From Strigamia acuminata (Eukaryota; Arthropoda; Chilopoda; Geophilomorpha; Linotaeniidae), in NCBI GenBank assembly GCA_949358305.1, contig OX442324.1:2717501-2781500 (forward strand): a stretch of 64,000 nt of DNA, in the 5' to 3' direction. Positions 18,167 to 53,628 of this stretch are shown in pieces; the stretch's first letter is position 1; each line of letters begins with the position of its first letter. The notes beneath the pieces are model-generated. The model had not been told where the DNA came from. It did no database searches and worked only from the letters and a program-made list of their open reading frames with translations. The position numbers and the translations under genes were made by a program.

Positions 18167-20406
18167 TCATGAGGATGCAGTGGTGGTTGTTGACGAGTTG
18201 TTAAGGTGGTTGTTGTGGTTGGTATGCTCGTCATGATAAGAGTTTCCGTTCATCACAAAAGAGGTCCCGAGTCCGTACAAATGACCGCAATATTTGGCGT
18301 CATCGATGTTATCCTCAAAAAACATCTGAAGAAATAAAATAAACAAGAAAAAAAAAGAAAATGGTAAAAAAAAAAAAAAAAAAATGGAATTAAAGAATGG
18401 TTTTTAGTGTTTTCCGAGTAGTTATCAAATCCACCACCACGCCGCGCAGCGAAAAATCAAAATGGCCATTTCATAACTACTCGAATTGTGGCGAAAACGT
18501 TTGATTTATATCTTTTTTTTTATCGCATTATTATTATATTTAAAACAAAAAAAAAACATTTTTTTGACGAATTTAAACCCCAGATGTGCGCAATTCAGAT
18601 CAAGCGGATCAAAACAGGCCTAAACGTCCCAGTCCCAAAATTGCAAATGGCCGCTCCCGAATTTTTCACTTTTGTATCGAATTTTTCTCGATTTCTTGCA
18701 CAAATATTGACATATACAAAATAAAAACTCTTAAAAACTTGAATTATTTTATTGTTCTTTGGGTTAAACAAACGAATCCAATTAAACTTAGAACTTTAAA
18801 TGTGAATTTAACTGATAAAAAAAAAGATGTAAACAAAATAAATAAAAATACATTAAAAGAAAAAGAAAAATTTAGACGTGATAATTACCTCTCTCATCTT
18901 GAAGAAGGCGGCCCCGGTCAACAGACTGTCACTGCCGGCTTGATGTTGTGGTCCTATCCTCTCCAGCTGCGCACAACGAAGGGTATTAACAAACACGTTA
19001 AATTGCACATTAAATTAAGCCGCAACAAGCTGGATTACCTCGAGTTGTTCGGCCACTTCTTGCAGTCCTCCTTTCAGGCTTTTGCAGCTTTTCATCAAAT
19101 ATTTCACATCGTAGATGCTCGGGAAGTATATCCGAAGTAAATCGAAAAAATCCGCTTCTTCCGACGGAAGATTTTGATCGATCAGTAATTTGAGGAGGTA
19201 ACCGAAGTCATAGCCACTGTAACATTAATTATTTCGGGTTAGAACCGTTCGGGGGAGATGGGTTTGCTTGCTTTTCTACCTGTGAAATGAAAGCCATTTA
19301 ACGTTCTCGTTGAGTACAACTCCTGATGTCATTAGAAGCTCGGCGAAATCATGCACTTCGATCCCATCTTCCTCGTGTTTTTTGAACTGGATGCCCGAAT
19401 TCTGAAGTAAATCTATAGAATCCTGGGCATACATATCCTCGCTGTGGATTCAAAAAACAGTTACGTTCATTTTGTGAGTTTTATTGGTGGTTGAAGAGGA
19501 AAAAGTGAGCAATTTCTCGATTTTTCGCTGGTTAAAAGCGAAAAAGAGAGAATTTTCTCAAGATTGGGTGAAAATTACGTCAAATTGAACTTGAAATTGA
19601 ATTGCCACGTTGAGTATCCAGGCGGTGTTTTGCCATTTTCATCAAGGAACGTCAGTCCCAGTTGAATGATTTTTAGAAGATCTACATTGCATCGAAGTAG
19701 TTGGTATTGATAATCTGCCGTGCTTCTGAATTCTCCAATAGGCCGTGCCACGACTCCGGGAAACTCCGTGTCCTTTAAAATGAAAATGTCCACAAAAAGA
19801 AAAATGAAAAACGAGAAAAAATAAACATTTCATATTTAAAAAAATGATAAATTCAATTTTTCACACTAAAAATAATGAAAAATTCAATTTTCCATTCTAA
19901 AAATCTTGAAAAATTTAATTTTCCATACTAAAAATAATGATAAATTCAATTTTCCATACTAAAAATAATGAAAAATTCAATTTTCCATACTAAAAATAAT
20001 GAAAAATTCAATTTTCCATACTAAAAATAATGAAAAATTCAATTTTCCATACTAAAAATAATGAAAAATTCAATTTTCCATACTAAAAAAATTGAAAAAT
20101 TCAATATTTCAGAGAAAAAATAATAAAAAGGCAACATTTCGCACGAAAAAATCGAATTTTCAGATGAAAAAAAATCAATTTTTCACACGAAAAATCAACT
20201 TTTCCGTGAAATAATGAAAAAAACCAACGTACCATCGCGACATACTGATATTTCTGCACTATTTGTCGAATATGTCTAAATTCTTCCTCCAAATTCGCAC
20301 CCCAAACGTCACGAATACCACACTCTTCGTTGTTAGGGATGTGGTTGTTAGAAGAGTTCAAACTACTGTGGTTATTGGGACCTGTAGCTATTGGCATTAT
20401 ACACAT
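18167..20406 (-). CDS. CNOT7: CCR4-NOT deadenylase subunit CAF1
   Basis: Six coding exons (20,406 or 20,397-20,233; 19,772-19,579; 19,441-19,280; 19,216-19,039; 18,966-18,889; 18,325-18,167) give 311-314 residues against 285 in human CNOT7/8. Two in-frame ATGs start MCIMPIATG or MPIATG; the second resembles the usual family start. The DEDD-type nuclease residues are visible in [18 protein letters not shown] and [10 protein letters not shown]. The last exon encodes [20 protein letters not shown] and a His/Asn/Thr-rich tail. CAF1 shortens mRNA poly(A) tails in the cytoplasm. The leader has a spliced exon ending near 20,522 with an ATG whose frame runs past the main start (see the upstream ORF entry). 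The gene is head-to-head with VPS37A, and a second, truncated copy lies at 48,353-49,686. Confidence 0.95.
19845..20105. repeat. Intronic minisatellite, 31-bp unit, about 8 copies
   Basis: Copies of a unit close to AATTCAATTTTCCATACTAA plus AAATAATGAAA fill most of the CNOT7 intron between coding exons 1 and 2. The corresponding intron of the second copy (about 48,600-48,735) has only about three units, so the array changed in number after duplication. Confidence 0.85.
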
Positions 20407-20522
20407 CAATTCCAATAAGAATTAAGTTCCTTTGCCTTTGCGTCCAATAGTGATGATTGGCTGTCATGTAGTACTGATCACAAACTCCTTTCCTAATTAC
20501 ACTTGCCTTCATTAATGCATAA
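20372..20522 (-). promoter_or_regulatory. CNOT7 leader exon with overlapping upstream ORF
   Basis: After a TTTAG acceptor the leader reads ATGCATTAA (a two-codon ORF) and then ATGAAGGCAAGTG. The second ATG opens 46 codons, starting MKASVIRKGVC, that run across the CNOT7 start codons in another frame and stop inside the first coding exon. Such an arrangement usually lowers initiation at the main ATG. The same structure is kept at 48,230-48,378 in the second copy. Confidence 0.6.
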
Positions 20523-21399
20523 CCTAAACAAAAACAAAAACAAAAACAATTCAAAATCAAACTCTAAACAAAAAATTTTCCAAACAAAAAACATAAAAAA
20601 ACAAAAAATTAATTTTTTCGTTTTTTTAACTAAAATTTTGATACATTTAAGCCTAAATCGAGTAAAAAAATAACACATTGAACGCCCGCAAAAAGTGATT
20701 TGTCTCAATTAAATTCAATCATTCCAGTTTGAAATCAATTCATCGAACATCGTTTTGTCAAAACGTGATGGCGGATTGAGCATTTTATACTTTTAAATTG
20801 CTGTTGTTTGGGTGAATTTGTAGCAACCATGTCGAAACAAACATCCCAAACCGCCATCGTTTCGTGCCGTCTTTCAAATTTGCTTTTTTCCGTTTCAATT
20901 CGATCGAGTTTCACTTACCTATCGAGGAAAATGCATTTATTTGAACGTGATCACAGTATCGTTAGTGAAATGGCAGCCCCAAGCCAACAACAATGCAAAA
21001 ATATTCAGAAATGCTTTGGCCTCTTTGTGGAGATATAAATGACGTGAAATTGCTATACTACGCAGCCGCGCAAGTCGTTCTGGGTAACGTGAGCAGGGAA
21101 ATCGATTATCCGTATCGGTCGGATCGTTAGTCGGAAAATTAAAGTGGAAACCGGTTCTAACGTTTAGAAATTTGATTTCTTTTAAATTTTAAATTTAGTT
21201 TTCGGTGATTTTTGTCAGATTTTGCAGGTTTGGTGTGGTTGGTGCGATTAGTAAAGATGGAATGAGTGTTTAGCAAGAAATCGATAACGTTTTTAAAATT
21301 CGGTTAATCGATTCTTGTTAACGACGTCATTCGAACACAATGACGTCATAGAGATCGCGTAGTCAACAAAGTTTGACTGAGAAACTCGTTAAATGCACG
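20523..21399. promoter_or_regulatory. Shared divergent promoter region of CNOT7 and VPS37A
   Basis: The two genes point away from each other, with about 1 kb between their start codons. The segment at 20,740-21,150 is less AT-rich than its surroundings. TGACGTCA-like words occur at 21,320-21,350 (GACGTCATTCG, AATGACGTCATAG), suggesting CREB/ATF-type sites near the VPS37A start. The part up to 21,276 is duplicated at 47,494 onward; the rest is not. Confidence 0.5.
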
Positions 21400-23215
21400 A
21401 TGTTTCATGCATTATTTCGGAAAAGAGAAGACGAAGATCCAATCATAACTCCCTTGCAAAAACAAAGGGATTTACAGATCGAAAAAATGACAACATTTCA
21501 TGCCAAGTAAAAAAAACCCGTGATAAATAACTTAATAAAAACGAATAAATGACATGGCGTGTCAATCAACTTTCTCTTTCGTTTTTCTAGTGTCGTTGAG
21601 GTTGTTCGTTACACCGACTACAGAATTCCACTCGTCCTAGGCAACCTGTCAATCACTTTAATAATGTAACGAATTGGAAATTAAAAAATCATTTTTTTCG
21701 CACACTAAAACAATTTTTATTCCGCCTTTGCAGATTATTACCGCCATATTTTCCTCAAGACCGACCCGATTTCCAAATATCTCCGCCTGTATTACATCCG
21801 TGGGTCAATGACGAGCAGAAAGTTGTTGGCTGTATCGCATTAAAAACTGTACGAAACAAGATACGAAATGGCACAACGTAAATGTTGAATACAACGCAGG
21901 TGTATTGACAGAATCAAGATTTTCCTCATCATTTTTTAGTCGTTTGGTTCAATTTAGACATTTATTTTAGCCGTTTGGTTCAATTTAGACATTTATTTTA
22001 GTCATTTGGTTTAATTTAGACATTTATTTTAGTCGTTTGGTTCAATTTAGACATTTATTTTAGTCGTTTGGTTCAATTTAGACCCGCGTTGTAAAGGATA
22101 CTGCGTTCTATTAGAGCATTTACAGTAACTTGTTTACGATTTTTTAATTGTTTTACATTTTTTTTTTAAATAGTTTAATTTGCATTCAGATTTGAGTAAA
22201 ATCATTGAAGATGTTATTAATGAATTCCAAATGAGGCCACCCGTGTTGGATCTTGCTTGCCAGTAATTGTTTAGGATTGAATTTCTTTGATTGATTTAAA
22301 ATTAATTTTTTTGTTTTGTTTTAGTTCGAGTGCGAAAGCTCCGCCGCCGCCATTTATTCCAACCGAAATGTCGAGTATTATTGGAACTTTGATGTCTTAT
22401 GGCACATATCATCCACTATCGGTATGGATTTGTGGATTTAATCAATCGGGATCGGTTGATTCACCTTTTTTTTTCTCTTTAAAAGGGCACAAATTTGGCT
22501 TTGGAGGTTCCATGTTGTTTTCCTGAATTGAAAGACTTGAGGTATTCGAACGAGTACCTACGAAAATATTAAATATTAATTCATGTGTTCGTTCTGATTT
22601 TAAATTCAGCATAGAAGAACTTGAGCATTTAAACAACGACGAAACTAACCTGTCGGAAGTGATCGACAAGTTACCGATAATGCAGACATTAGAGAAGGAA
22701 TTAGAAAAATTGAGTGTTTATAATGAAAATCTTGCAAGTAGGAAAAATTTAAAATTTAATTTTAATTCATTTACAAATTTGTTAATTGATTACTTTGTTT
22801 TATTAGAGGAAAATATAAGACAGCAGCCTCGAATAGAAGAATGTAAGAAGCTGGTGTTAGATAAAGTGGACCAATTGACGTCGTGTCGCGGCGACTACGA
22901 CGACTACAACGCTCGATTTCAAGAGTTGGCGCAACGTTTTATGCCCGAAAGTATCCAACAGCATTTGAAATTCGCAGCGCTGCGTGCGGAGGAAGAATCG
23001 GAGGAATTGGCGCTCACTTTCCTAGAGAATAAAATGGAAACCGACGAATTTTTGCATAAATTCTTAGAATCAAGAACCGTAAGAATGAATTCATTGCGGA
23101 AAATAAATCATTTCCAATATACATATATTTTTTTTATCTTTAGTTGTATCACTTAAGAAGAGTTAAAGAAGAAAAACTTCAGCAACAACTCTTCGATATG
23201 CACAAATCAAACTAG
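21400..23215 (+). CDS. VPS37A: ESCRT-I subunit VPS37A
   Basis: Nine exons (21,400-21,506; 21,591-21,665; 21,734-21,848; 22,174-22,262; 22,325-22,421; 22,486-22,541; 22,610-22,737; 22,807-23,078; 23,144-23,215) join in phase to 336 residues (human about 397). The N-terminal third is a UEV-like fold: VVEVVRYTDYRIPLVLGNLS, LPPYFPQDRPDFQISPPVLH, FNLHSDLSKIIEDVINEF. A proline-rich linker (APPPPFIPTE) follows, then the C-terminal Mod(r) helical domain with KLPIMQTLEKELEKL, CRGDYDDYNARFQELAQ, EEESEELALTFLENKM and RRVKEEKLQQQLFDMHKSN. The protein is part of the complex that sorts ubiquitinated cargo into multivesicular bodies. Its 3' end faces RARS1 with 168 bp between stop codons. Intron 3 carries a MITE. 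Confidence 0.92.
21876..22128. mobile_element. MITE in VPS37A intron 3, with an internal 32-bp minisatellite
   Basis: ACGTAAATGTTGAATACAAC near 21,876 is the approximate inverse of GCGTTCTATTAGAGCATTTA near 22,104-22,123. Between them are five copies of a 32-bp unit (TAGTCGTTTGGTTCAATTTA plus GACATTTATTT). The same terminal repeats, with one diverged unit, occur in a UBE3A intron at 38,098-38,297, so this is a dispersed family. Confidence 0.7.
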
Positions 23216-25267
23216 CAATTTTGTTGTGATTTTACTTCGCTAAATTTCTATATTTATTTCAGCAATTGTTTAAGATTTTTTTACGCGAATTGTTTGTAGA
23301 TGTTGAATAAATTTAATAATAAAAAAAGCCTTCGATGTTTCTAGTCCTTCTCAAACAAATTGTTATTTTATTGACCAAACATTTTACATTTTCTCAACGG
23401 TTTTAATTCCCAAAATGCTAAAACAAGCCGCCATGACAGCGGAAGTAGCTTCGCACAACATCAAGCGATTCATGTTTACTTTGACGATTTCGCCTGTAAA
23501 TTAGAATAAAATAAAATATATATAAAGAAATGATATAAAATGCTTTTAACGTACCTTGTTTGTCTTTTTCGATACAATAACATTTATCGTAAAACTCCGT
23601 AAAAGTACAAGCGATTTCGTACAAATAGTCGCAAATCGAATGGATCAACAAATCCTCCAAACACTGGAGGATAACATCGGGGAAATGGAGCAACAATTTA
23701 GCCAACTTCAATTCTTTCGGATGATCAAACGTCGGCGGTCCTTCTTCGGCCGCTTTTCGAAGTTGTTCGCAACTCACTTGAGCGGTTCGCGCGATCGAGC
23801 AGATTCGCGTGTGCGCGTACAACAGATACGCCGCCGTGTTGCCTTTATCGTCGAGCATCTGCCGAAAAACACAAACAAATAAAACAACTTTCCAACACTT
23901 AAACCGCATCAAATAAAAACGAACTCACTTTATCAAACGAGAAAATGTAATCGTTCGTTCGATTATGCGACAAATCCGCATATTTAATGCATCCGAACGC
24001 AACCGCTCGCTGCGCCGCTTCCAATTCTTCTTTCGTCAGAACCTTATCGCGTCCTTTCTCCTGCAATTTCTGCAACGATCGGCTGAGACCTTCGTTTAAC
24101 AGATCTTTCAACCGAACCGTATCGCCGGAACGAGTCTTAAATTTCTTTTTGTCTTCGCCCAACACGACGCCAAAGTGCGCGTGTTCGATGCGTACTTTTT
24201 CGGGGTCGTAAAACCCAGCTAATTTGGCACAAGCGAAAACGCTGAGAAAATGTTGTGCTTGGCCGGCGTCCACGACGTAAACCAGTCGGTCGTGTTTCTC
24301 GTCGCGTACTCGATGACGAACAGCGGCCATGTCCGACGTATCGTACGTAAATCCGCCGTCGGACTTCACAATCGTCAGCGGAATATCCTGTTCCTTGGAA
24401 AACATAATTTTCCGTCCGTTGTCCTCCTCCAGGAAGCCTAAAAATTGCAAAAACGTATGAAAATCGTTGCAAAAAATTTTTAAAATAAAAATTAAATTAA
24501 AAATTCCACCTTTTTCTTCTAATTCTTTCACGACATCGACCATCATGTCTTGATAAAAACTTTCGCCTCTTTCGATCAGCGTGATGTCCAGAACATCGTA
24601 AATCGCTTCGAATTCCTTTCTGCTCACGTTGCAAATTAATTTCCACGCTTTGATGAAATCTGGATGGTGATTTTGCAATTTAACGACACAAGAATACGCT
24701 CGTTTTTTGAATTCTGCATCTTCATCAAATCGAATTTTGGATTCCTAAAAGAAAATCCAAAAAAAAAATTAATTTTCGTTAGAAAACATTTTTTTTAACC
24801 CTAAATTAACTTTGTAAAACTGTTGTAAATCTGCAATTGGAGGCGAAACCGTCAAAAAATTTGGATATTCGTCTTGCAAATGGGCAATTAACATGCCAAA
24901 CTGAGTGCCCCAATCTCCGACATGATTAATTCTGGTCACCGCATGACCGACGTATTCTAGAAGTCGACAAATACTTTCTCCGATGATGGTGCTACGTAAA
25001 TGGCCGACATGCATTTCTTTCGCGATGTTCGGCGACGAGAAATCGACAGCAACTCGGTGCTGAGGTCCAGTGTACGGAGACTTGACGCCTCCCAACAGAA
25101 TTGCGTGCAAACGTCGTTGAATAAATTCGTGTTTAAGAAATATGTTAATAAATCCTGGCCCGGCTATTTCGGTTTTCTCTATCACGTCATTGCTGGGAAC
25201 TTTGGAGATAATTCTGCTAGCAATTTCGCGTGGTGAGATGGAAATGCCTTTCCTGGCTTTCAGAAGC

Positions 25268-25298
<31 letters not shown>

Positions 25299-25310
25299 AA
25301 GAATAATTTG
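22726..25310. repeat. Segmental duplication block D2, source side
   Basis: It matches 51,019-53,626 inverted at about 99 per cent by eye, covering VPS37A from the end of exon 7 to its 3' end and RARS1 exons 4-8. In the copy it is joined directly to 27,031-27,221. Confidence 0.9.
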
Positions 25311-26675
25311 ATTAATTAATCGATTAAACGAGTGAAAATAGGAGGAAATTACTAACAGGGTTGAGTTGCAGAGCCGCATTGCAGTCGTAATCGCCGAATT
25401 TCTCGTTTTGGCTCCGATGAATGACGAAAATCGGTTCGCCTATGTCTTCGAAGCAGTCGTTTATAGCAATTGTGAACAAGTCGCGTAAGATATTCTGAAT
25501 GTTGGCACTCATGGTGTCGTTCAAATTCCTTGATTTGCTCTCTTCTAGCTGACAAGCCTAAAAGTTGACGTAAAAAGTAAAAAAAAAATGAAAAAAATGA
25601 AAAAAACTGAACAAAAAATGTAGAAAATTAAAAAAAAAAAAGAAAAAAAAAAATTGATTTTAAGAAAATTGGAATAGAAATGAAGAAAATTGAAGAACCT
25701 TGAAAGAAAACTGTAGAAAATTAATTTAAAAATTGAAGAAAAATTTGAAGAAAAAAAAATCAGCTTATATTTGAGGGCGGGGACCAAATTGGCAATGGGC
25801 AAAACCATAAAATGGGGACAGCATAGACGAGCTCCCAAATTTGCGATTTTAAAGTAATTAAACAAAAATTCTCTCAAATTGGCGACTGCAAAAAATGTTG
25901 TCCCAAATTGGCGATTTGTAAAAGATTTTGTCCAAAATTGGCGATTTTTAAAAGGTTTTGTCCCAAATTGGCGATTCTTAAAAGATTTTGTCCCAAATTG
26001 GCAATTTTTTAAGAAATAACAATAAGGAATAAACGATATAAACTTTTATTTATTTTATTAAAAGACGCGTACTGCTAGTGAACTGAAATGTAAAGAATGC
26101 ACTTTAGGCAAATAATCGACGAAGGTGTTTGCACTTCTTGATTACTTCACGACACACATGGCATTTCAGCTGTACGCAAAACATACTCAATCGCCAATCG
26201 CCAATTTGCATTCGTCGCCAGTGTATTCATCGCCAATTTGAGATGAAATTAAAATAAATAACCATCTCCAACCTGGTCCTCGTCGCATTACATTATTTTA
26301 AATTCGGCGCCAAATAAGGCTATCGCCAATTTGGGAGTGATTTAAGAAATCGCCAATCTGGCCATTGCCAATTTGGTCCTCGTCGATATTTGATTTTTTT
26401 ACTCACTCGTTTTAATATGTCTAATCTGCTCTTGAGTTTCGTGTTTTCCAAACGCTGTTTTTCCAACTCAGCCGTTTCACCACCCAAGCCTTGCCACGTG
26501 CTTGACGCGGACTTAACACTTTCCAAATCTTTTGTTAATCTTTGAATTTCAGCTTCCTAGAAACAAAAAACAATTCTCAAAAAAAAAATATGTATCCCTC
26601 ATTCTTTTTCTCGACAAAACCAACCGCCTTTTCTGCCTTTTGAGTATATTCGTTGACAATCAGTTCAATATCCAT
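23384..26675 (-). CDS. RARS1: Cytosolic arginyl-tRNA synthetase
   Basis: Eight exons (26,675-26,625; 26,556-26,407; 25,557-25,357; 25,266-24,811; 24,744-24,510; 24,437-23,929; 23,858-23,555; 23,493-23,384) join in phase to 671 residues, close to human RARS1 (660). A leucine/lysine-rich N-terminal helix, as used for docking in the multi-synthetase complex, precedes the Add-1 domain. The class I catalytic core has the HIGH motif as [50 protein letters not shown] and a KMSKS-equivalent [13 protein letters not shown]. The C-terminal anticodon-binding helices end [20 protein letters not shown]. It charges tRNA-Arg. The gene is head-to-head with AKAP17A and tail-to-tail with VPS37A. Intron 3 (25,558-26,406) carries a tandem repeat. 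A 5'-truncated second copy lies at 51,052-52,931. Confidence 0.96.
25866..26020. repeat. Tandem repeat in RARS1 intron 3, unit about 38 bp
   Basis: Four to five copies of a unit containing GTCCCAAATTGGCGATTTTT and AAAAGATTTT. The word CCAAATTGGCGAT recurs, singly and inverted, up to about 26,380 in the same intron, giving a cluster of dyad words with an ATTGGC core. Confidence 0.75.
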
Positions 26676-26909
26676 CTCCAACGCCGGTAAATAAACGTGG
26701 CTCCGTGTTATTCTTCTCTCACGACGCACTCAAACCCCGGCACGATGCAGCCACTATCCCGCCCACCTAGCGTCAAAATCCAAAACCTCGAAAACAAACC
26801 CACATTTTTCCATTGACGGTAATGTTGTATAGCAATACAGCAATGTGGAAGGATTTCTAACTGAACGAATGGTGCATACACCATTCTGCAGACTTTCTCA
26901 GGAATTGCG
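26676..26909. promoter_or_regulatory. Bidirectional promoter between RARS1 and AKAP17A
   Basis: Only 234 bp separate the two start codons, so both leaders and the promoter share this space. No TATA box is obvious on either strand. The interval is absent from the second copy, which jumps from 25,310 to 27,031. Confidence 0.6.
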
Positions 26910-32447: not shown

Positions 32448-32644
32448 TGAAAGACGACAATGGCGCTTTGAAAACGAATAAAAAGTAAATACTGTATCGT
32501 CTGTGGCGAAAAAATAATGCAAAATAAATTAAGGCAACATTTTATAAACATCAAAAACTAGTGATTAATAAATAAATTGTTATAGATAATTGGTATAAAT
32601 TAATTTCTTACAAAAATATCATGATTACATTAGGAATATCACGA

Positions 32645-33132
32645 TTACATTAGGAACATATCGGCCGTGGCCTCGGCCCCTATCAGAGCCCCGAGAATAT
32701 TCTAAATAGAAGAAAAAAAATTATTTTTTTTAAAATTTTTAGTTTTTACTCACATATCGTATCGACAATTCCGCAGTCGCAATGCGCGGTCAAAATTCAT
32801 GTATTATTGACTACGTAGTTGAAAAGCGATGTGAAGCCGATGGCCCATCGCAAACATTTGGCTACACACACTGCAACTAATTAAAGTGTGTTATTTTTTT
32901 CTTCAAAATTTCATTTTAAAATTTTTTTACCTTATGTCGAACGTGAAAGTGAAAAATCCGTTGTCAAATGACAGGCGTAGCAGGTCCATGGTTGTGCGTA
33001 TGCGATTCAGCTGTTCAATAGTGAAATTTCCAGCTAACACACTATTACAAACTTGAAGGCGAAATCCTAATGGCGCTTCTGTAAAAGCATTTATACTATA
33101 AATGCTTTTATAGCCTGTATGGTAGCTTGCAT
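32645..33132 (-). pseudogene. Broken paralogue of the 123-residue unknown gene at 50,212
   Basis: Three blocks (33,132-32,931; 32,870-32,754; 32,701-32,645) match the exons of the 50,212-50,701 gene in order and keep the splice signals. Conserved words are MQA, SVLAGNF, DNGFF, and ILGALIGAEA before the stop. Exon 1 is 5 nt longer and contains an in-frame TAA beside a 26-bp palindrome near 33,087; exon 2 is 1 nt shorter and has a stop. The protein identity looks like roughly half, so the pair is far older than the CNOT7/RARS1 duplication. Confidence 0.75.
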
Positions 33133-34665: not shown

Positions 34666-34888
34666 AAAAAAAATATATATATATATAATAATAATAGTAA
34701 TAATAATTAATTTGGTTAATTTTCTTTCTATTTTAATTTTCTTCTATTTTTTATTTGATAAAATCAGCCGCGGTCGATCCCCCTCGCATGCCCACGCAGG
34801 TCGCGTTGTACGCTCGGTTAAGAGTCGACTCCACAGCGGTGATGATAAAAAGTTGCACACTAATCTTGTCGGTGAACTACACCATTCT

Positions 34889-42475: not shown

Positions 42476-45364
42476 CTAAAATGTGAGATAAAATTTGAGG
42501 AAATCGTTTCGGCCCAGATTATTTAATTTATTTTTAATCTAGAGAATAAATAACGTGAAAACTTTACAATTTATATAAAAATTAGAGATTATATTGTAAT
42601 ATTCGCGAGTTTTCTAATCTTAAGGCACACTGTTGATTTATTTTCGGCCATTTCTGCTCCATCTAAACTTCTAGTTTGTTCTGTTGTTGTTGTGAATGAT
42701 GATGGAAACACCCTGTTCAGAAATAGTGACAACTATGACGTTGACATTGACGCTGTTTGCCAAAACTTGAAATGCTTTGTTGGCTTTGCTGTACGAATGA
42801 AATCTTTCGAGACGGAAAGTTTTATTTGCTTATTTTTCTTTCATTTTTTGTGTATCAACGCTATCATTCCATTGCGAATAAAATAAAACGTTTTTCTAGT
42901 TTCACATGTGTTAGTCAATTTTTTTGAGGTGTAACTAAACAATAAAATTAGCATAAAAACAAAAGGCCTTGTCAACCCTATAGAAGATGTGTGGGGAGGA
43001 AAGTGGTTGGATAACTAATTTTTGGCCGATTTTGACCAGGTTAACCTTGGTGATATTACCAAATTCACCAAGGACTAAAGTGTGTCGTAAAAGAGCTTAA
43101 AAAATCGATTAATTATTACATGTACCGGTATCTGCCACCGCTGCAGAGATATGGGTCAAAAACTGAATTTCTCAGAGAAAAAGTCGTCAGGAAAACGCAG
43201 TTTTTCGCCCACATCTCTGCCAGTTTTTTTTTTACGCAGACTACATGTAGTTTCCATGTAGTTCTACGTGTTTTTGGTTTGTTTGTTTTAACGGGACTGT
43301 GGCACACAACGACGCGACTGTATTGGAATGCAATACGGAGTGCTACTTTGGATTTACCGGATTTCATAAGCAAAATGAATATTTCTAGTCGTGACTACCA
43401 GAAGGTTTCTTCCCTCACCTGAAGAATTTGAAAGGGATTGAGTTTACAGGGCATACAAGTGTCATAACGATCTGAGCATAATTAATGACAGCAAGCCCTA
43501 CACTGCAACTGAACTCTACAATTAGCGAACAGCAGCGCTTACCTTAATTAACTTGCTAAAACTATCATGTGGAATGTATTTCCAAAATAAATTATTTCCT
43601 TTCTTTTGTGTTTCCTCTCTTCTACTTACAAGTATGACCCAATAAAGTGTCCTAATTGAGGATTAGCTTGGTTGCCTCAATAGTTTTAGGTTACAAAGCT
43701 GAGTTACAAAGCTGAGTAGACCAATGTTTCAAACCTATTTTCTCAAAACTTTTCAGTAAGAAATAATTTTTTTAAGAAAAGTTCTAGACTAATAGTATGA
43801 TGCTCTACAACTTTTTAATTGGAAATTTTGCTCTAACCTGATTGGTTTAGAAGTTAGCAAGTGGATGACCTTGAAAATGGCCTTCAAGATCAAATTTGAT
43901 GACATCATTGGATTGCTCTCACCCAACTTCCTATACGATCGCTTCATCAAAGTTGGCCTAGATGCATTTGCTCACGAAATATTTAGGGTGGTTCAGACTT
44001 TTGGGACACCCTGTATATATGAAACGTTTTAATTCCCTCGAAACGCTCGTTTTAAATAAATCAAATATTAAATTCATTTAGGAAATAACACCAACACACA
44101 AAATAATTTTTAAATTTTTCTTTTTTTCATCTCCAAACCGAAGCGCTTTAAGAAATTAACAGCCAATTTGACGTCTTTAATTATTGAAATTTTTCTTTTT
44201 CTTTTCATATTTTAGTTGTTGCGCTTTAACTTGTTTTAATGAAGGGATTGGGTTTCTGAAGATGTTGCAAAAAAAGATTTCCCAAATTAAAATAAAAAAA
44301 TTGAAAAAAAAAATTTTTTTTGAGTGGGGGTGTGGGGGGTAGTGAGTGTTTCTTAAGGATTTACTTCAATTTAAGGGGAAGGGGCGGAGTAAAGAAAACA
44401 AAATTCAAGAAAAGTATTTTTTTCCCCTGTCCTTTACTCCTTTAGGACTAATTTATAAAGGGAAGGGCGAAGTTTGCAGGGACTGCGAGTAAGTAATCGA
44501 TAAAACAGGGAAGAAAATGATTGATCCTAACACAAATCCTTTTCCGTGCTTTGAATTATGGGTAGCTTTTATCTCACTCTTTTTTTATTTCATGAATAGT
44601 GAACGGAATTTCGAAAATCCAAAAAAGAAAATGTTTTACTCGTTAATTTTTTTTCCTTTTCCCCTTTGAGAAGTCAGGAATGTTGTAAGTAAAGTGAAAA
44701 ATAAAAAAAAGTTCTTGCCAAACTGATGGAACTCGAATAATTACATTCTTATTGTTATTAAAAAATTCTATTTCATCCACCTTTGTTTATAAATGTTTGA
44801 AACGGGTTTTGAAATTTTGCTTAAATCTCTCCTCGTGCATTTTTCTTCCGTTTTTTTTTTCGCAAGTTTTGACTCTTTGCGTTAGATTTATGTTTAATCA
44901 ATCACCCAAAGTGTTTCCACGGACGCGCCGAGGCGAAAATTAAAACGCAAAATTGGTATTCGACTATTCGTCCGTGGGAAGTAGAAAAACCGGTCCGAAA
45001 AGGGTTTTTTATCTTTTTAAAACAAAATTGATTTTCTCGCCGACAATTTTCAACGGTTTAACTTTAAACGATTTGCCTATTGTTATCTAATGGACTTGAG
45101 GTTGCATTAAATGCAACGATGGCCACCGCGACAACAATCAATGTCCTCCGCGGCTCAAACTCTCGTTACAATGCGAAACAAGCTGGGATTTGTAATGCAG
45201 GGAAGCATTACACATTAGACTTCTGAACCCTGTCCTTTTGTCTCTAAATATAACACCGAAATTATAGAAAATAAAGTAATTTAAAAAAAAAAATTTTTGT
45301 TGCCATTATAAAGCAACAACAAACAAAATCCCACCAAAATTTGATATGATATGCTGCGGAATTG

Positions 45365-45547
45365 TTGCATCCGGGGTTTGCTACCATCGGGAAATAAATC
45401 GCGCGAAAAACTAGAAAATATTTCTATAAAAAAAAAGTAGTTCGATTTAGTTCGATACAGTTCGATATAGTTCGATTTAGTTCGATATAGTTCGATTTTA
45501 TTTCGCAGCCAATCACAGCTCATTTGCGGCAAACCCCGGATGCAACG
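45365..45547. repeat. Fold-back with 17-bp perfect arms around a 10-bp tandem array
   Basis: GTTGCATCCGGGGTTTG near 45,365 is the exact inverse of CAAACCCCGGATGCAAC near 45,531. The 10-bp array of TTCGATATAG/TTCGATTTAG units lies between them. This looks like a small MITE-like unit. Confidence 0.65.
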
Positions 45548-45594
45548 TATCCGCGACGTATCCGCAAGTGTGAACCGTCTTCCAAGAAAATTAC

Positions 45595-45628
45595 GGAAAT
45601 GACGTCGTTATGATGACGTCATTTCCGC
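45595..45628. repeat. 13-bp hairpin carrying two TGACGTC words
   Basis: CGGAAATGACGTC and its exact inverse GACGTCATTTCCG are separated by eight bases. Each arm contains a CRE-like half palindrome. No adjacent gene start is recognised, so a regulatory role is uncertain. Confidence 0.5.
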
Positions 45629-46937
45629 AATTTTCATGGAATACACTGCTAAAAGTGCACTAAAACCGGTTTATTAATTCAACCGGAGGTGGGAGAAATC
45701 TGATTACACCTTAGGATACTAATATAGGTATGCTGGATTTAATGCCGTTGTCCGTTTCGCTCTATCTTTTATAGTTTTTGCGGAATCGTTGTAGACGGAC
45801 GGACAGACCGACATGACCGTTTTATGAGACTTTCTAAACACCAGATTTAGAAGTCTAAAATCGATGGCCAGCTCAAACTAAAAATGCACCCCATTATCCC
45901 AACGAACCATCAATTGTTTCGAATTCATTACGAGATAAAAATAAAACGCGCTTTGAAAAACACGAGAAAGTCATGGATTTTTCCCCTCAATAAAAAAAAA
46001 CTTTTTATCTCGTTCCCGATAACACCGCCATTTTTCTTTTTAAAAATTTTTTTTCCTCCGTTATCCTTTTATGGGAGTTAATTGTATTCAAAAATGTTAA
46101 TTCCAACGCCCCAAAAATAGCTGGAGGAGATTTTCGCAGAATTCCGCCGTAATTTTGCATCCGAGTCAACCTTGGACTGGTTTTCACTCGAACACAAGGG
46201 ACATTTGAGGTCAGGGAAAAATAGAGGGGTCCATACAGCAAGGTCATGACCAGCCTGCTACAGCTGAAGGGAGATAGGGGACGCGCGATCCATCAATGAC
46301 TCACTCGCGATTACAATGACTCGACACATTTGAGTGTAAGCCGCTTCCACTCTTTTTCCCGTCTCGATTCTTCAATTCGCAACCGTTTAATGCCTATTTT
46401 CGGACACAAATTGGCACGAAAATAACCAAAACAAATGATGTCATCTGCCGAGTATTGCCCAACACGACGGAACAAGCACAAATGACCGTTTCCGGTGTTT
46501 TTTTTTTTAAAAAAAAATCGCTTGTTTCCACTCGTAATTCGGTGGGAGATCTAACATGCATTCGCGCTTTTTAGAGAAACACAAACATAAAACTCCTCGT
46601 GTTTCTCTCCGCATATAACATCAATAACAACATGTGTTTTTCCCCGCTTTTAACGACCAAATTACGCAACTTTTCATCCATTTCACGAAACCAAACCACA
46701 AAAAAAGACCTCGATCCAGAATCTTATCACCTCGGAGGAAAAAAAAGGAAAAAAGTTCGTCTAGACTGATAATAGCCGTTATCAACGAAACGACACACAA
46801 ATCCACTACGCGAAGACGGCAAAACAATTACTGTGGAGTGGCGAGCGCGATAGAGAGAGAAAGAAAGAGAAGCGTTGGAGAGCGCGATTAGAAAGACGCG
46901 GGCTGCACTTGGAAAAAAATAATTGAAGACCCCTCAC

Positions 46938-47340
46938 CTGCGACTAATTGTACAAGTCCTGCCGCTCTGGCCGTTGATTGGTTGATATCAGTGACGCAAC
47001 AGGCCATGACTGCCGTGAACGCCACGAGCAACGCCACAGCAGACGCTCCACCCACCAGCACGGTGCTCACCTGCCACGAGACGCTGGGCACGTGCGAGAA
47101 AGTGGTGTAGCGTCCGCATTCCGCCACTAACACAATGTCGCCTTGAGGCGTCAGGTTGGGGTAGTTGCAGCGCCGGAAACTACCGAAATACACGTCGTGC
47201 GTCTTGGACGTGTTGTTGGTGAACGAGGGCAACGTCCCGTGCAGCCAGTAGGGGAGGTAGAAGGCAGTACTGGCCAGTGCGACGCTTAAGAGTGATATGA
47301 GTGCCCACAGCACGCCCGTCGCTGTCAGGCTGGTGGCCAT
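46938..47340 (-). CDS. LHFPL tetraspan protein, first coding exon only
   Basis: The exon starts at the ATG MATSLTATGVLWALISLLSV and ends at a GTGAGG donor after ARAAGLVQLVAG (134 codons plus 1 nt). It encodes membrane segment 1 (VLWALISLLSVALASTAFYL), an extracellular loop with PYWLHGTL, YFGSFRRCNYP and VAECGRYTTF, and membrane segment 2 (VLVGGASAVALLVAFTAVMA) followed by CC. This is the LHFPL/TMHS pattern. The remaining exons, with membrane segments 3 and 4, were not found downstream on the minus strand and may lie outside the window or be lost. The duplicated block begins about 150 bp upstream of this ATG, so its promoter region abuts the breakpoint. Confidence 0.8.
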
Positions 47341-47493
47341 GGGATGAGGTTGTCTTGGGAACGGGGTAAGAACATGCGTCTTGGTCGGGCGCCGTGAGCA
47401 GAATGGGGACCACCGACTGGTGAGTTGCTTCGAGTTGCCCAATGGGAGAGGGACGGAGTTGACGGCGTCTGCTTGTGGTGCTTGGTGTTGGCG

Positions 47494-50008
47494 CTAAACA
47501 CTCATTCCATCTTTACTAATCGCACCAACCACACCAAACCTGCAACATCGGACATAAATCACCGAAAACTAAATTTAAAATTTAAAATAAACCCAATTTC
47601 TAAACGTTAGAACCAGTTTCCACTTTAATTTTCCGACTAACGATCCGACCGATACGGATAATCGATTTCTCTGCTCACGTTACCCAGAACGACTTGCGCG
47701 GCTGCGTAGTATAGCAATTTCACGTCATTTATATCTCCACAAAGAGGCCAAAGCATTTCTGAATATTTTTGCATTGTTGTTGGCTTGGGGCTGCCATTTC
47801 ACTAACGATACTGTGATCACGTTCAAATAAATGCATTTTCCTCGATAGGTAAGTGAAACTCGATCGAATTGAAACGGAAAAAAGCAAATTTGAAAGACGG
47901 CACGAAACGATGGCGGTTTGGGATGTTTGTTTCGACATGGTTGCTACAAATTCACCCAAACAACAGCAATTTAAAAGTATAAAATGCTCAATCCGCCATC
48001 ACGTTTTGACAAAACGATGTTCGATGAATTGATTTCAAACTGGAATGATTGAATTTAATTGAGACAAATCACCTTTTGCGGGCGTTCAATGTGTTATTTT
48101 TTTACTCGATTTAGGCTTAAATGTATCAAAATTTAGTTAAAAAATTGAAAAAATTAATTTTTTGGTTTTTTATATTTTTTGTTTAGAGTTTGATTTTGAA
48201 TTGTTTTTGTTTTTGTTTTTGTTTAGGTTATGCATTAATGAAGGCAAGTGTAATTAGGAAAGGAGTTTGTGATCAGTACTACATGACAGCCAATCATCAC
48301 TATTGGACACAAAGGCAAAGGAACTTAATTCTAATGGGAATTGATGTGTATAATGCCAATAGCTACAGGTCCCAATAACCACAGTAGTTTGAACTCTTCT
48401 AACAACCACATCCCTAACAACGAAGAGTGTGGTATTCGTGACATTTGGGGTGCGAATTTGGAGGAAGAATTTAGACATATTCGACAAATAGTGCAGAAAT
48501 ATCAGTATGTCGCGATGGTACGTTGGTTTTTTTCATTATTTCACGGAAAAGTTGATTTTTCATGTAAAAATTCGATTTTTTCGTGCGAAATTTTGCCTTT
48601 TTATTATTTTTTCTCTGAAATATTGAATTTTTCATTATTTTTTAGTATGAAAAATTGAATTTTTCATCATTTTTAGTTTGAAAAGAATTGAATTTTTCAT
48701 TATTTTCAGTGTGAAAAATTGAATTTTTTATTTTTTTAAATATGAAATGTTTATTTTTTCTCGTTTTTCATTTTTCTTTTTGTGGACATTTTCATTTTAA
48801 AGGACACGGAGTTTCCCGGAGTCGTGGCACGGCCTATTGGAGAATTCAGAAGCACGGCAGATTATCAATACCAACTACTTCGATGCAATGTAGATCTTCT
48901 AAAAATCATTCAACTGGGACTGACGTTCCTTGATGAAAATGGCAAAACACCGCCTGGATACTCAACGTGGCAATTCAATTTCAAGTTCAATTTGACGTAA
49001 TTTTCACCCAATCTCGAGAAAATTCTCTTTTTTTCGCTTTTAACGACCGAAAAATCGAGAAATTGCTCACTTTTTCGTCTTCAACCACCAATAAAACGCA
49101 CAAAATGAACGTAACTGTTTTTTGAATCCACAGCGAGGATATGTATGCCCAGGATTCTATAGATTTACTTCAGAATTCGGGCATCCAGTTCAAAAAACAC
49201 GAGGAAGATGGGATCGAAGTGCATGATTTCGCCGAGCTTCTAATGACATCAGGAGTTGTACTCAACGAGAACGTTAAATGGCTTTCATTTCACAGGTAGA
49301 AAAGCAAGCAAACCCATCTCTCCCGAACGGTTCTAACCCGAAATAATTAATGTTACAGTGGCTATGACTTCGGTTACCTCCTCAAATTACTGATCGATCA
49401 AAATCTTCCGTCGGAAGAAGCGGATTTTTTCGATTTACTTCGGATATACTTCCCGAGCATCTACGATGTGAAATATTTGATGAAAAGCTGCAAAAGCCTG
49501 AAAGGAGGACTGCAAGAAGTGGCCGAACAACTCGAGGTAATCCAGCTTGTTGCGGCTTCATTTAATGTGCAATTTAACGTGTTTGTTAATACCCTTCGTT
49601 GTGCTTAGCTGGAGAGGATAGGGCCACAACATCAAGCCGGCAGTGACAGTCTGTTGACCGGGGCCGCCTTCTTCAAGATGACAGCGGTAATTATCACGTC
49701 AAAATTTTTCTTTTTCTTTTAATGTATTTTTATTTATTTTGTTTATCAGTTAAATTGGATTCGTTTGTTTAACCCAAAGAACAATAAAATAAGTCAAGTT
49801 TTTAAGAGTTTTTATTTTGTATATGTCAATTTTTGTGCAAAAAATCGAGAAAAATTCGGGAGCGGCCATTTGCAATTTTGGGACTGGGACGTTTAGGCCT
49901 ATTTTGATCCGCTTGATCTGAATTGCACAAATCTGGGGTTTAAATTCGTCGAAAAAATGTTTTTTTTTTGTTTTAAACATCTAATAATGCGATAAAAAAT
50001 AATTTTCA
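47494..50008. repeat. Segmental duplication block D1', inverted copy
   Basis: Inverse of 18,508-21,276. It starts in the AACACTCATTCC word upstream of VPS37A/CNOT7 and ends within the intron before the last CNOT7 exon. The main difference is the shorter intronic minisatellite. Confidence 0.9.
48353..49686 (+). pseudogene. CNOT7: Second CNOT7 copy lacking its last exon
   Basis: Five coding exons (48,353-48,517; 48,803-48,996; 49,134-49,295; 49,359-49,536; 49,609-49,686) have the same lengths as the first five coding exons of the 18,167-20,406 gene and nearly identical sequence. All four DEDD-type catalytic blocks are kept. The last exon is missing: the copy ends in the preceding intron. Exon 5 ends KMTA instead of KMRE, just before an intact GT donor. 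Read-through of that donor would add a short unrelated tail. The leader and promoter are copied too, so transcription is possible. Without the C-terminal helix it is probably a pseudogene or a truncated protein. Confidence 0.85.
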
Positions 50009-50211
50009 TCCTCAGAAACGCTTTCGACGCCATCTTTTTCTGAGAATGCCACCAGATGGAGCCACGGATTCAAAAGTAAAATCACGTGGTTTTATTGATT
50101 TTTATTATGTTTAAACTTTAAACCATTTCTTTCATTCAAACTCCTCCTGGTCAGATTCAGTTGTCAGCTCTTCAAAAATTTCGTCGTCCAATTATCCACC
50201 ATTAAAAAACC

Positions 50212-50701
50212 ATGCAAGCTGCATTCAATACAGCCATGCTGTCTATCCACGCATTTGTGGAGGCCCCTGAAATGTTTCGCCTACAAGCAATTGAAAGCGT
50301 ATTGGCTGGAAACTTTAACGTTGCGCAGTTAAATCACGTTACGGAGACCATGGAAATGTTGCAGTTATCCGTTCACAATGGATTTTTCGTGTTTGAAATC
50401 GACCTAAGGTAAAAAAAATTAACAAGGAAAATTTGAAAAAAAAATTAACTGTCTTTAATTAGGTGCACTAATTTTGGTGTGATTCACGGGATGGGGATTC
50501 ACATGCCTATCCATTTTGTTATGTTGAATAATCGAATGATTTTGAGTGCCTTTTGTAATTGTGGACACCCGATACGATTCGTAAGTAAAAACTAAAAATT
50601 TAAAAAAAAAACATTTTTAAAAAATATTAATTTTCTTCATTTAGAATGTGTTAGGCGTGTTGATAGGGGCCACCGCCTTGCAGGATGAACTACAGATGTA
50701 G
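50212..50701 (+). CDS. Unrecognised 123-residue protein, three exons, intact
   Basis: Exons 50,212-50,408, 50,463-50,580 and 50,645-50,701 join in phase, with clean GT-AG borders, from ATG to TAG. The protein begins MQAAFNTAMLSIHAFVEAPE, has a helical, leucine-rich first half (SVLAGNFNVAQLNHVTETME), a middle rich in His, Met and Cys (GVIHGMGIHMPIHFVMLNN, FCNCGHPI) and a short hydrophobic end (NVLGVLIGATALQDELQM). No signal peptide or known domain is recognised. A broken paralogue with the same exon layout is at 32,645-33,132; conservation is strongest at SVLAGNF, DNGFF/HNGFF and the last exon, which argues for past selection on protein. It sits between duplicated CNOT7 and AKAP17A/RARS1 pieces but is not part of their source cluster. 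Confidence 0.6.
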
Positions 50702-50828
50702 TCGTGAAATATTATATACCTAGTGTTTTCAAAAATATTTTTGTATCTAAATTACCATATTTTGTAAAAAATTATTTATTCTCCAGTTTAATGTTTATAA
50801 AATTTGATTTGATTTAATTTGCATAATT

Positions 50829-51018
50829 TAATCGTTCTGTTGTCTAAGCGACTGTTAATATTTTTTGATTGCGTCCTGTTTTCTGCCTCTCCTTCGAAAC
50901 GGATAAAATCCAACGTGCTTTTGCTCACTTTGAGTGCGGTGAATTGGTTCGGTTTGATGCCTGCTTTGATTTTTTCCATCACTTCCCAGTTCGAGATGGA
51001 TTTGCCGGGGACTTTCAT
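50829..51018 (-). pseudogene. AKAP17A: Fragment of AKAP17A exon 1
   Basis: Inverse of 27,031-27,221: it encodes MKVPGKSISNWEVMEKIKAG through NRTIKL with two or three amino-acid changes and then ends. It is fused at 51,018/51,019 to a RARS1 intron, which corresponds to a 1.72-kb deletion of 25,311-27,030 in the copy. Confidence 0.9.
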
Positions 51019-51051
51019 TAATCAAATTATTCTTTTATTATTATTATATAG

Positions 51052-52931
51052 CTTCTGAAAGCCAGGAAAGGCATTTCCATCTCACCACGCGAAATTGCCA
51101 GCAGAATTATCTCCAAAGTTCCCAGCAATGACGTGATAGAGAAAACCGAAATAGCCGGGCCAGGATTTATTAACATATTTCTTAAACACGAATTTATTCA
51201 ACGACGTTTGCACGCAATTCTGTTGGGAGGCGTCAAGTCTCCGTACACTGGACCTCAGCACCGAGTTGCTGTCGATTTCTCGTCGCCGAACATCGCGAAA
51301 GAAATGCATGTCGGCCATTTACGAAGCACCATCATCGGAGAAAGTATTTGTCGACTTCTAGAATACGTCGGTCATGCGGTGACCAGAATTAATCATGTCG
51401 GAGATTGGGGCACTCAGTTCGGCATGTTAATTGCCCATTTGCAAGACGAATATCCCAATTTTTTGACGGTTTCGCCTCCAATTGCAGATTTACAACAGTT
51501 TTACAAAGTTAATTTAGGGTTAAAAAAAATGTTTTCTAACGAAAATTAATTTTTTTTTTTGATTTTCTTTTAGGAATCCAAAATTCGATTCGATGAAGAT
51601 GCAGAATTCAAGAAACGAGCGTATTCTTGTGTCGTTAAATTGCAAAATCACCATCCAGATTTTATCAAAGCTTGGAAATTAATTTGCAACGTAAGCAGAA
51701 AGGAATTCGAAGCGATTTACGATGTTCTGGACATCACGCTGATCGAAAGAGGCGAAAGCTTTTATCAAGACATGATGGTCGATGTCGTGAAAGAATTAGA
51801 AGAAAAAGGTGGAATTTTTAATTAAAATTTTTTTAAAAAAAAATTTGCAACGATTTTCATGCGTTTTTGCAATTTTTAGGCTTCCTGGAGGAGGACAACG
51901 GACGGAAAATTATGTTTTCCAAGGAACAGGATATTCCGCTGACGATTGTGAAGTCCGACGGCGGATTTACGTACGATACGTCGGACATGGCCGCCGTTCG
52001 TCATCGAGTACGCGACGAGAAACACGACCGACTGGTTTACGTCGTGGACGCCGGCCAAGCACAACACTTTCTCAGCGTTTTCGCTTGTGCCAAATTAGCT
52101 GGGTTTTACGACCCCGAAAAAGTGCGCATCGAGCATGCGCACTTTGGCGTCGTGTTGGGCGAAGACAAAAAGAAATTTAAGACTCGTTCCGGCGATACAG
52201 TTCGTTTGAAAGATCTGTTAAACGAAGGTCTCAGCCGATCGTTGCAGAAATTGCAGGAGAAAGGACGCGATAAGGTTCTGACGAAAGAAGAATTGGAAGC
52301 GGCGCAGCGAGCGGTTGCGTTCGGATGCATTAAATATGCGGATTTGTCGCATAATCGAACGAACGATTACATTTTCTCGTTTGATAAAGTGAGTTTGTTT
52401 TTATTTGATGCGGTTTAAGTGTTGGAAAGTTGTTTTATTTGTTTGTGTTTTTCGGCAGATGCTCGACGATAAAGGCAACACGGCGGCGTATCTGTTGTAT
52501 GCGCACACGCGAATCTGCTCGATCGCGCGAACCGCTCAAGTGAGTTGCGAGCAACTTCGAAAAGCGGCCGAAGAAGGACCGCCGACGTTTGATCATCCGA
52601 AAGAATTGAAGTTGGCTAAATTGTTGCTCCATTTCTCCGATGTTATCCTCCAGTGTTTGGAGGATTTGTTGATCCATTCGATTTGCGACTATTTGTACGA
52701 AATCGCTTGTACTTTTACGGAATTTTACGATAAATGTTATTGTATCGAAAAAGACAAACAAGGTACGTTAACCATTTTATATCATTTCTTTATATATATT
52801 TTATTTTATTCTAATTTACAGGCGAAATCGTCAAAGTTAACATGAATCGCTTGATGTTGTGCGAAGCTACTTCCGCTGTCATGGCGGCTTGTTTTAGCAT
52901 TTTGGGAATTAAAACCGTTGAGAAAATGTAA
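51052..52931 (+). pseudogene. RARS1: Second RARS1 copy, 5'-truncated but open
   Basis: Five exons (51,052-51,507; 51,574-51,808; 51,880-52,388; 52,459-52,762; 52,822-52,931) match RARS1 exons 4-8 in length and phase, with no stop or frameshift. Together they give 537 codons, holding the HIGH motif ([10 protein letters not shown]), the [10 protein letters not shown] region and the whole anticodon-binding domain. The first three exons, the start codon and the shared promoter are deleted. Translation could begin only at internal ATGs such as [10 protein letters not shown] (51,133). One coding change seen is HFSDVILQ in place of HFPDVILQ. Near-identity means little time for decay, so openness alone does not show function. 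Confidence 0.85.
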
Positions 52932-53099
52932 AATGTTTGGTCAATAAAATAACAATTTGTTTGAGAAGGACTAGAAACATCGAAGGCTTTTTTTATTATT
53001 AAATTTATTCAACATCTACAAACAATTCGCGTAAAAAAATCTTAAACAATTGCTGAAATAAATATAGAAATTTAGCGAAGTAAAATCACAAGAAAATTG

Positions 53100-53628
53100 C
53101 TAGTTTGATTTGTGCATATCGAGGAGTTGTTGCTGAAGTTTTTCTTCTTTAACTCTTCTTAAGTGATACAACTAAAGATAAAACATATACTAGTATGTAT
53201 ATTGGAAATGATTTATTTTCCGCAATGAATTCTTACGGTTCTTGATTCTAAGAATTTATGCAAAAATTCGTCGGTTTCCATTTTATTCTCTAGAAAAGTG
53301 AGCGCCAATTCCTCCGATTCTTCCTCCGCACGCAGCGCTGCGAATTTCAAATGCTGTTGGATACTTTCGGGCATAAACCGTTGCGCCAACTCTTGAAATC
53401 GAGCGTTGTAGTCGTCGTAGTCGCCGCGACACGACGTCAATTGGTCCACTTTATCTAACACCAGCTTCTTACATTCTTCTATTCGAGGCTGCTGTCTTAT
53501 ATCATAGAGTAAAGAATATTCTTTACTCTATGCTTATATTTTCCTCTAATAAAACAAAGTAATCAATTAATAAATTTGTAAATGAATTAAAAGTAAATTT
53601 TAAATTTTTCCTACTTGCAAGATTTTCA
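53100..53628 (-). pseudogene. VPS37A: 3' fragment of VPS37A with a palindromic insertion
   Basis: The last exon (53,171-53,100) and the Mod(r) exon (53,545-53,237) are present, plus a stub of the preceding exon. Exons 1-6 and most of 7 are missing. The Mod(r) exon is 37 nt longer than its source because of a 30-bp palindrome and a 7-bp duplication at 53,496-53,539, which breaks the frame. Confidence 0.88.
53503..53532. repeat. 30-bp perfect palindrome flanked by 7-bp direct repeats
   Basis: The half-site is CATAGAGTAAAGAAT. CTTATAT occurs on both sides (53,496-53,502 and 53,533-53,539). The source VPS37A exon at 22,807-22,830 has a single copy of that heptamer and no insert. Confidence 0.85.

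What the first reader, a model, noticed from the sequence alone, without database searches (positions are those of the whole stretch)
18508..53626. Near-identical inverted duplication whose block order is circularly permuted
Source order is CNOT7(-), VPS37A(+), RARS1(-), AKAP17A(+). A plain inverted copy would read AKAP17A(-), RARS1(+), VPS37A(-), CNOT7(+). The copy at 47.5-53.6 kb reads CNOT7(+), unknown gene, AKAP17A scrap(-), RARS1(+), VPS37A 3' part(-). All blocks are inverted, but the cut lies inside VPS37A (21,276-22,726 is missing) and the old outer ends (18,508 and 27,221) now face each other across 820 bp. That is the signature expected if a circular DNA of the cluster was opened and inserted. 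Identity is about 99 per cent including introns, so the event is recent, or reflects assembly of two haplotypes.
Basis: partly seen in the sequence, partly recalled or inferred. Interest (0 to 1): 0.9.

Follow-up and report, generated by a model that had tools for sequence, protein, structure and literature searches.

The report
Patchwork gene-fragment duplication on centipede X
A stretch of a centipede's X chromosome is a patchwork of copied gene fragments from several places, most likely left by an error-prone DNA repair, so the shuffled order that looked like an inserted DNA circle has a more ordinary explanation.

Summary
The inverted, re-ordered copy is real. Source A 18513-21274, B 22724-25317 and C 27027-27220 recur inverted at 47493-50002, 51018-53628 and 50825-51018. 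Ungapped identity is 97.8%, 98.4% and 99%, not 99% throughout. By size the genome is Strigamia acuminata and the contig its X, from a male. That makes a second X haplotype unlikely.

On its left, 44014-47494 copies a chromosome-8 fragment (LHFPL), joined to A with 2 bp of microhomology. The "unknown gene" 50003-50829 is a 65% paralog of a gene at 32.5 kb, cut at both ends. On the right come a half MITE and a copied X fragment from about 240 kb away. Divergence of four blocks does not differ (p=0.60).

The two strict marks of circle insertion fail: 827 bp separate the old outer ends, and 1,449 bp with VPS37A exons are lost at the opening point. With two or three same-strand blocks, rotated order is weak evidence. 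Serial template switching in break repair fits best; a circle is not excluded.

The parts
18513..21274 (+). Source block A: CNOT7 exons 1-5 (gene on -), the shared CNOT7/VPS37A upstream region and the VPS37A start; CNOT7 last exon lies outside at about 18295
21275..22723 (+). Middle of VPS37A (exons recognised by recall), absent from the copy; elsewhere in the assembly only its 31-bp minisatellite was matched
22724..25317 (+). Source block B: 3' part of VPS37A (+) and RARS1 exons from 25268 to the stop (-)
25318..27026 (+). Segment skipped inside the copy (RARS1 first exons, start of AKAP17A)
27027..27220 (+). Source block C: piece of one AKAP17A exon
32512..33292 (-). Gene D, 65% paralog of D'; the only close relative of D' found in the assembly
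43556..44017 (+). Half of a palindromic multi-copy DNA element; its outer end meets the chromosome-8 block at a TA
44014..47494 (+). Copy of C10 (chromosome 8 by length) 8283985-8286783, with LHFPL exon 1 on -; interrupted by a 678-b element at 45179-45856
47493..50002 (-). Copy of block A (CNOT7 lacking its last exon)
50003..50829 (+). D': gene fragment paralogous to D, homologous to it up to both junctions
50825..51018 (-). Copy of block C (AKAP17A scrap)
51018..53628 (-). Copy of block B (RARS1 lacking 5' exons; VPS37A 3' part)
53631..53827 (+). Half of a MITE with inverted arms (66 of the 75 matches are arms of this element); cut at its inner side where block B ends
53840..54355 (+). Copy of C12 (X) 3013434-3013936, about 240 kb to the right; 94.8%

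Best explanation
The stretch of about 10 kb at 44.0-54.4 kb is a patchwork segmental duplication on the X chromosome of the centipede Strigamia acuminata. It is made of truncated copies of sequence from chromosome 8, from the neighbouring CNOT7-VPS37A-RARS1-AKAP17A cluster, from a paralog of a gene at 32.5 kb, and from an X site about 240 kb away. It most likely arose when a chromosome break, possibly at a DNA transposon, was repaired by copying from several templates in turn, with jumps at about 2-5 bp of matching sequence (template switching as in MMBIR, or as in duplication-dependent strand annealing). Shown: the blocks, their matching places, the junctions, the truncations, and divergence that does not differ between four blocks. 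Inferred: the direction of copying, that one repair event made the whole chain, and that replication rather than ligation of fragments did it. RARS1 is the only gene that would have been complete had blocks B and C first been copied as one piece, and RARS1 shows by far the strongest constraint. So the 1,709-bp gap may be a later deletion.
For: Several sources in one chain: chromosome 8, local X blocks, D', a half MITE and X +0.24 Mb. Direction: the source RARS1, CNOT7 and VPS37A read as complete by eye while the copies are cut; an LHFPL profile match to positions 115-153 (with one TAG inside) lies at C10:8272967, about 11 kb beyond the copied block. Microhomology at J1 (GC) and J4 (AT), perhaps up to 5 bp at J3, and similar sequence at J5. 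A gap bounded by microhomology is described as a trace of strand-annealing repair (PMC3276153, passages). Differences per site: A non-coding 46/1509, B non-coding 14/591, chr8 block outside the LHFPL exon 54/2285, X+0.24 Mb block 14/503; p=0.60 (counts, test). DNA elements lie at the left edge and right of B. Genome searches with window 1-8800 and 33400-46600 listed no low-copy match of 500 b or more in 1-8800 or 33400-43500 (about 40 places scored each).
Against: D' is far more diverged from D (0.42) than the other blocks from their sources (0.024-0.031), so its template is not the present D, and no closer one was found. Similar divergence cannot separate one event from several close together. 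A further X match (61693-61965) is more diverged, 0.045, and was left out of the test. Divergence is not uniform inside blocks: differences in A are clumped (p<0.001; longest identical run 402 bp, p=0.006), in B mildly (p=0.017), and RARS1 synonymous sites differ more than the non-coding sites of B (21/347 against 14/591, p=0.007); this points to gene conversion or mixed ancestry. Short microhomology is also usual in end joining. RARS1 shows 1 non-synonymous difference where about 16.5 were expected for a dead copy, so the history holds more than a dead patch.
Confidence: 0.55

Rival explanations
1. A DNA circle of the cluster, closed through a copy of gene D, opened inside VPS37A with loss of 1.4 kb and was inserted in inverted orientation beside an existing chromosome-8 duplicate.
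For: All blocks share one orientation and the order is B-C-D-A; counted as four blocks, rotations are 3 of 23 non-identity orders. The mechanism is reported for human, cattle, tilapia and yeast (PMC7450558, PMC3245284).
Against: 827 bp of non-source DNA at the closing join and 1,449 bp lost at the opening point, against 1-27 bp in resolved cases. Rotated order is likely anyway with two or three blocks. The chromosome-8 and X+0.24 Mb blocks in the same chain are unexplained. D' is 0.42 diverged from D.
Confidence: 0.2
2. Several independent insertions piled up at one fragile, transposon-rich site: A on one side of D', B-C on the other, and the chromosome-8 piece separately.
For: The right flank 54.4-64 kb is rich in multi-copy elements, the 678-b element in the chromosome-8 copy shows the site takes insertions, and D' is older than the rest.
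Against: Divergence of four blocks does not differ (p=0.60); the printed joins run block to block (no systematic search for target duplications was made); D' is homologous to D right up to both junctions, so it looks cut rather than resident.
Confidence: 0.17
3. The copy was made recently but from strongly divergent alleles (or a sister lineage), so that most differences predate the copying.
For: 30 synonymous and 9 non-synonymous differences in five genes where 34 non-synonymous were expected of a dead copy; none of the ten copied CNOT7 and RARS1 exons displayed has lost a splice dinucleotide; European S. [quoted passage not shown] Compatible with the best explanation.
Against: Would need about 2.6% divergence, against 4.5 variants/kb in S. 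maritima (PMC4244043, passages). The constraint is concentrated in RARS1 (21:1 against 9:8 in the other four genes, p=0.005), which selection on a once complete gene explains better.
Confidence: 0.25
4. Assembly artefact or second haplotype placed in the contig.
For: No reads could be examined here.
Against: Male animal, X at half coverage, HiFi reads, QV 59.6 (PMC10556566); no N in the window; the copy is permuted, truncated and joined to chromosome-8 DNA; a 1-kb RARS1 query has two places in the assembly, both in this window.
Confidence: 0.04

Closest known systems
Template-switch duplications and templated insertions (MMBIR/FoSTeS; PMC8421209 and PMC6902434 outlines with abstracts seen, PMC2621351 seen in search listing only)
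   Same: Chain of copied pieces, microhomology or near-microhomology at joins, duplications mixed with deletions
   Different: Those cases are human disease or cancer; here an older, inherited patchwork on an arthropod X
Duplication-dependent strand annealing, as in the Drosophila simulans X-linked Paris sex-ratio duplication (PMC3276153, passages seen)
   Same: X-linked copy, DNA transposon beside the duplication, gap in the copy bounded by microhomology
   Different: There an exact copy of one segment lies beside its source with transposon modules between; here dispersed, inverted and drawn from several loci; no link to drive is known
Circle-mediated segmental duplications (PMC7450558 parts 1-2 of 4 read; PMC3245284 passages seen; PMC7188851 outline with abstract seen)
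   Same: Rotated block order, microhomology only, dispersed copy
   Different: Closing and opening points are not clean (827 bp gained, 1,449 bp lost); another chromosome takes part; much smaller than the 22-3918 kb human cases

Membership tests
Circle-mediated segmental duplication | Block order rotated, all blocks in one relative orientation | tested here: met
   weak evidence with few blocks
Circle-mediated segmental duplication | Old outer ends joined with only a few bp changed | tested here: not met
   827 bp of D' lie between them, 50003-50829
Circle-mediated segmental duplication | The two ends of the derivative are adjacent in the source (one opening point) | tested here: not met
   21274 and 22724 are 1,449 bp apart; the lost part holds VPS37A exons, and only its minisatellite matched elsewhere
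Circle-mediated segmental duplication | Circle observed, or acceptor site known from a relative without the insertion | not testable with these tools
   no relative genome held for G000 (note); no reads
Template-switch / strand-annealing duplication | Several distinct templates in one chain | tested here: met
Template-switch / strand-annealing duplication | Short microhomology at joins | tested here: met
   J1 2 bp and J4 2 bp clear; J3 perhaps up to 5 bp; J2 and J5 not exactly definable
Template-switch / strand-annealing duplication | One event | tested here: inconclusive
   divergence of four blocks does not differ, p=0.60; D' and the match 61693-61965 are more diverged
Template-switch / strand-annealing duplication | New copy made by DNA synthesis rather than ligation | not testable with these tools
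   sequence alone does not decide
Haplotypic duplication in the assembly | Second haplotype of the same chromosome available in the animal | tested here: inconclusive
   contig matches X by length and the animal is male; a pseudoautosomal location was not excluded

The most novel reading that the evidence does not exclude
One germline repair event stitched copies from chromosome 8 and several X sites into the X, creating a complete second RARS1 gene. That gene stayed under purifying selection for most of its life and was truncated only recently by a 1.7-kb deletion with 2 bp of microhomology: a natural chromoanasynthesis-like event with a gene birth and death inside it.
Probability: 0.25. Interest if true: 0.5.

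Novelty: new member of a known kind. Interest (0 to 1): 0.33.

Why it matters
It shows how easily a patchwork duplication can pass for a circle insertion, and which features tell them apart: clean closing and opening points, and whether neighbouring blocks come from elsewhere. If the chain is one event, it is a readable fossil of multi-template repair on a centipede sex chromosome. The RARS1 constraint gives a way to order events inside such a patch.

Tried and rejected
Transposon or Helitron capture of the cluster: the elements at the left edge and right of B are halves cut at their inner sides, not a pair of outer ends around the cargo, and I saw no matching short repeats in the printed junctions (no systematic search for target duplications or Helitron ends was run). 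Set aside as main model. Retrocopy: introns are kept. Source on the Y or another chromosome: a 1-kb RARS1 query has two places, both on C12; the 17000-28000 query found A, B and C elsewhere only in this window's copy, besides repeats and a diverged CNOT7-like gene on C8 (39 of 596 candidates scored). A later insertion into the source as the reason for the missing VPS37A middle (the kind of reading offered in the tilapia paper): rejected, since the stretch holds VPS37A exons (recognised by recall). Pfam for D and D' exons gave nothing but one sub-threshold hit. tRNA and Rfam scans (gathering thresholds) found nothing. Literature, judged from listings: 'Strigamia acuminata' gave 9 papers, none by title on such a locus; centipede + segmental duplication + microhomology, two of three terms, gave 328, and none of the 10 listed is on the animals by title. 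Other searches. Limits: genome searches scored only about 40 places each, so weak dispersed matches may be missed; 8800-17000 was not searched against the genome.
Full report
What is there. Self-alignment of the window confirms a second, inverted set of blocks: A 18513-21274 at 50002-47493, B 22724-25317 at 53628-51018, C 27027-27220 at 51018-50825. Ungapped differences are 54/2509 (A, 97.8% identical), 40/2570 (B, 98.4%) and 2/194 (C, 99%); non-coding parts are 97.0% (A) and 97.6% (B). The claim of 99% including introns is thus somewhat high. B and C are joined by skipping 25318-27026 with 2 bp of microhomology.

Where it is. The window is C12:2717501-2781500 of a genome of 237,517,015 bases in 157 contigs. 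Contig C12 has 9,630,499 bases and C10 10,363,448. The Strigamia acuminata genome note gives 237.5 Mb, X 9.63 Mb and chromosome 8 10.36 Mb, from one male, HiFi 98-fold, X at half coverage (PMC10556566; two of three parts of the text read). The RARS1 protein is 84% identical to that of Strigamia maritima and 60-64% to the other listed hits (120 of 7993 listed). I therefore take C12 as the X and C10 as chromosome 8; this is by size, not by name. In a male a second X haplotype is not available, unless this part is pseudoautosomal.

What surrounds the copy. The left neighbour 44014-47494 is a copy of C10:8283985-8286783 carrying the first LHFPL exon, with a 678-b element inside. It ends at 47494, where A begins at 47493. 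Left of it sits half of a multi-copy palindromic element, 43556-44017. On the right, B ends at 53628 against half a MITE (53631-53827), followed by a copy of C12:3013434-3013936. The unknown gene at 50003-50829 has one close relative in the assembly, the gene at 32512-33292, 65% identical (three matches, the others being itself and a 47-b hit); five 38% exon matches lie on C8. Its homology to D runs to both junctions, so it looks like a cut piece. Controls: the 1-8800 query listed itself and matches under 500 b, and the part 33.4-43.5 kb listed no match (about 40 candidates scored each). The stretch 8800-17000 was not searched.

Direction. The copies are truncated and the sources read as complete: the CNOT7 last exon lies at about 18295, outside A; RARS1 runs 26675-23387 in the source, but its copy starts at the exon of 25268; the VPS37A middle is lost; and an LHFPL profile match (positions 115-153, one TAG inside) lies at C10:8272967, beyond the copied block. 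So 18.5-27.2 kb and chromosome 8 are most likely donors. No outgroup genome was available to confirm this.

Age and constraint. Differences per site: A non-coding 46/1509, B non-coding 14/591, chromosome-8 block outside the LHFPL exon 54/2285, X+0.24 Mb block 14/503 (all of it counted as non-coding); they do not differ, p=0.60 (counts, test). A further X match, 61693-61965, is more diverged (0.045) and was left out. D' against D is 0.42. Coding differences (synonymous:non-synonymous): RARS1 21:1, CNOT7 1:3, VPS37A 3:1, LHFPL 5:2 plus one lost codon, AKAP17A 0:2. If the copy had been neutral for half the divergence, 34 non-synonymous changes are expected and 9 are seen (p=3e-7). RARS1 carries most of the deficit (16.5 expected, 1 seen), but the other four together are also low (17.7 expected, 8 seen, p=0.008). 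RARS1 differs from the other four together (p=0.005; 0.019 with CNOT7 left out). It is also the only copied gene that would have been complete if B and C were first one piece. That suggests a complete second RARS1 that was truncated later; a divergent template is the other reading. Divergence is not even: A is clumped (variance/mean 2.42, p<0.001, identical run of 402 bp), B mildly so (p=0.017), CNOT7 has fewer synonymous changes than RARS1 (p=0.004), and RARS1 has more than B's non-coding sites (p=0.007). Gene conversion or mixed ancestry may be involved. Exon limits were set by eye from translations, so counts near exon edges are approximate.

Circle or not. In the human set of circle-mediated duplications, resolved junctions show gains or losses of 1-27 bp or 1-2 bp of microhomology, and the two ends of the derivative are adjacent in the source (PMC7450558, parts 1-2 of 4 read). 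Here neither holds. The rotated order itself is the only possible change for two same-strand blocks and 2 of 5 for three. If D' counts as a fourth block it is 3 of 23, which is the best point in favour of a circle; but D' is far too diverged to come from the present D in the same event. The chain of chromosome-8, local and distant X fragments with short microhomology fits serial template switching or strand-annealing repair better. The report on the Drosophila Paris duplication describes similar traces, a DNA transposon beside the duplication and a gap bounded by microhomology as expected of strand annealing (PMC3276153, passages).

Verdict. A real, complex segmental duplication of a known kind, with the circle reading possible but second-best. 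The most interesting open point is the strong constraint on a RARS1 copy that is now truncated.

Noticed in passing
C8:11113598-11221336: Five equally scoring D-like exons about 17-31 kb apart on another contig, suggesting a tandem amplification.
   Followed up: no
window 31608-32454: This stretch matches repeats spaced about 2 kb apart in arrays at C10:6.77-6.80 Mb and C1:35.19-35.21 Mb.
   Followed up: no
window 21934-22129: A 31-bp minisatellite in VPS37A has over a hundred listed matches on many contigs, up to 96% alike.
   Followed up: partly
C8:14089425-14091410: A second CNOT7-like gene: five matches, 69-87% identical, that together cover all six exons.
   Followed up: no
window 8844-14201: Degenerate tandem array of about 280-bp units rich in TGGCAAAA.
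   Followed up: no
window 54376-61275: Pieces of a multi-copy element (one piece has 15 listed places at 92-93%), with an inverted repeat between 54.4-54.9 and 60.3-61.1 kb.
   Followed up: no
window 45179-45856: A 678-b element in the chromosome-8 copy, absent from the donor; listed relatives are only 80-89% alike.
   Followed up: partly
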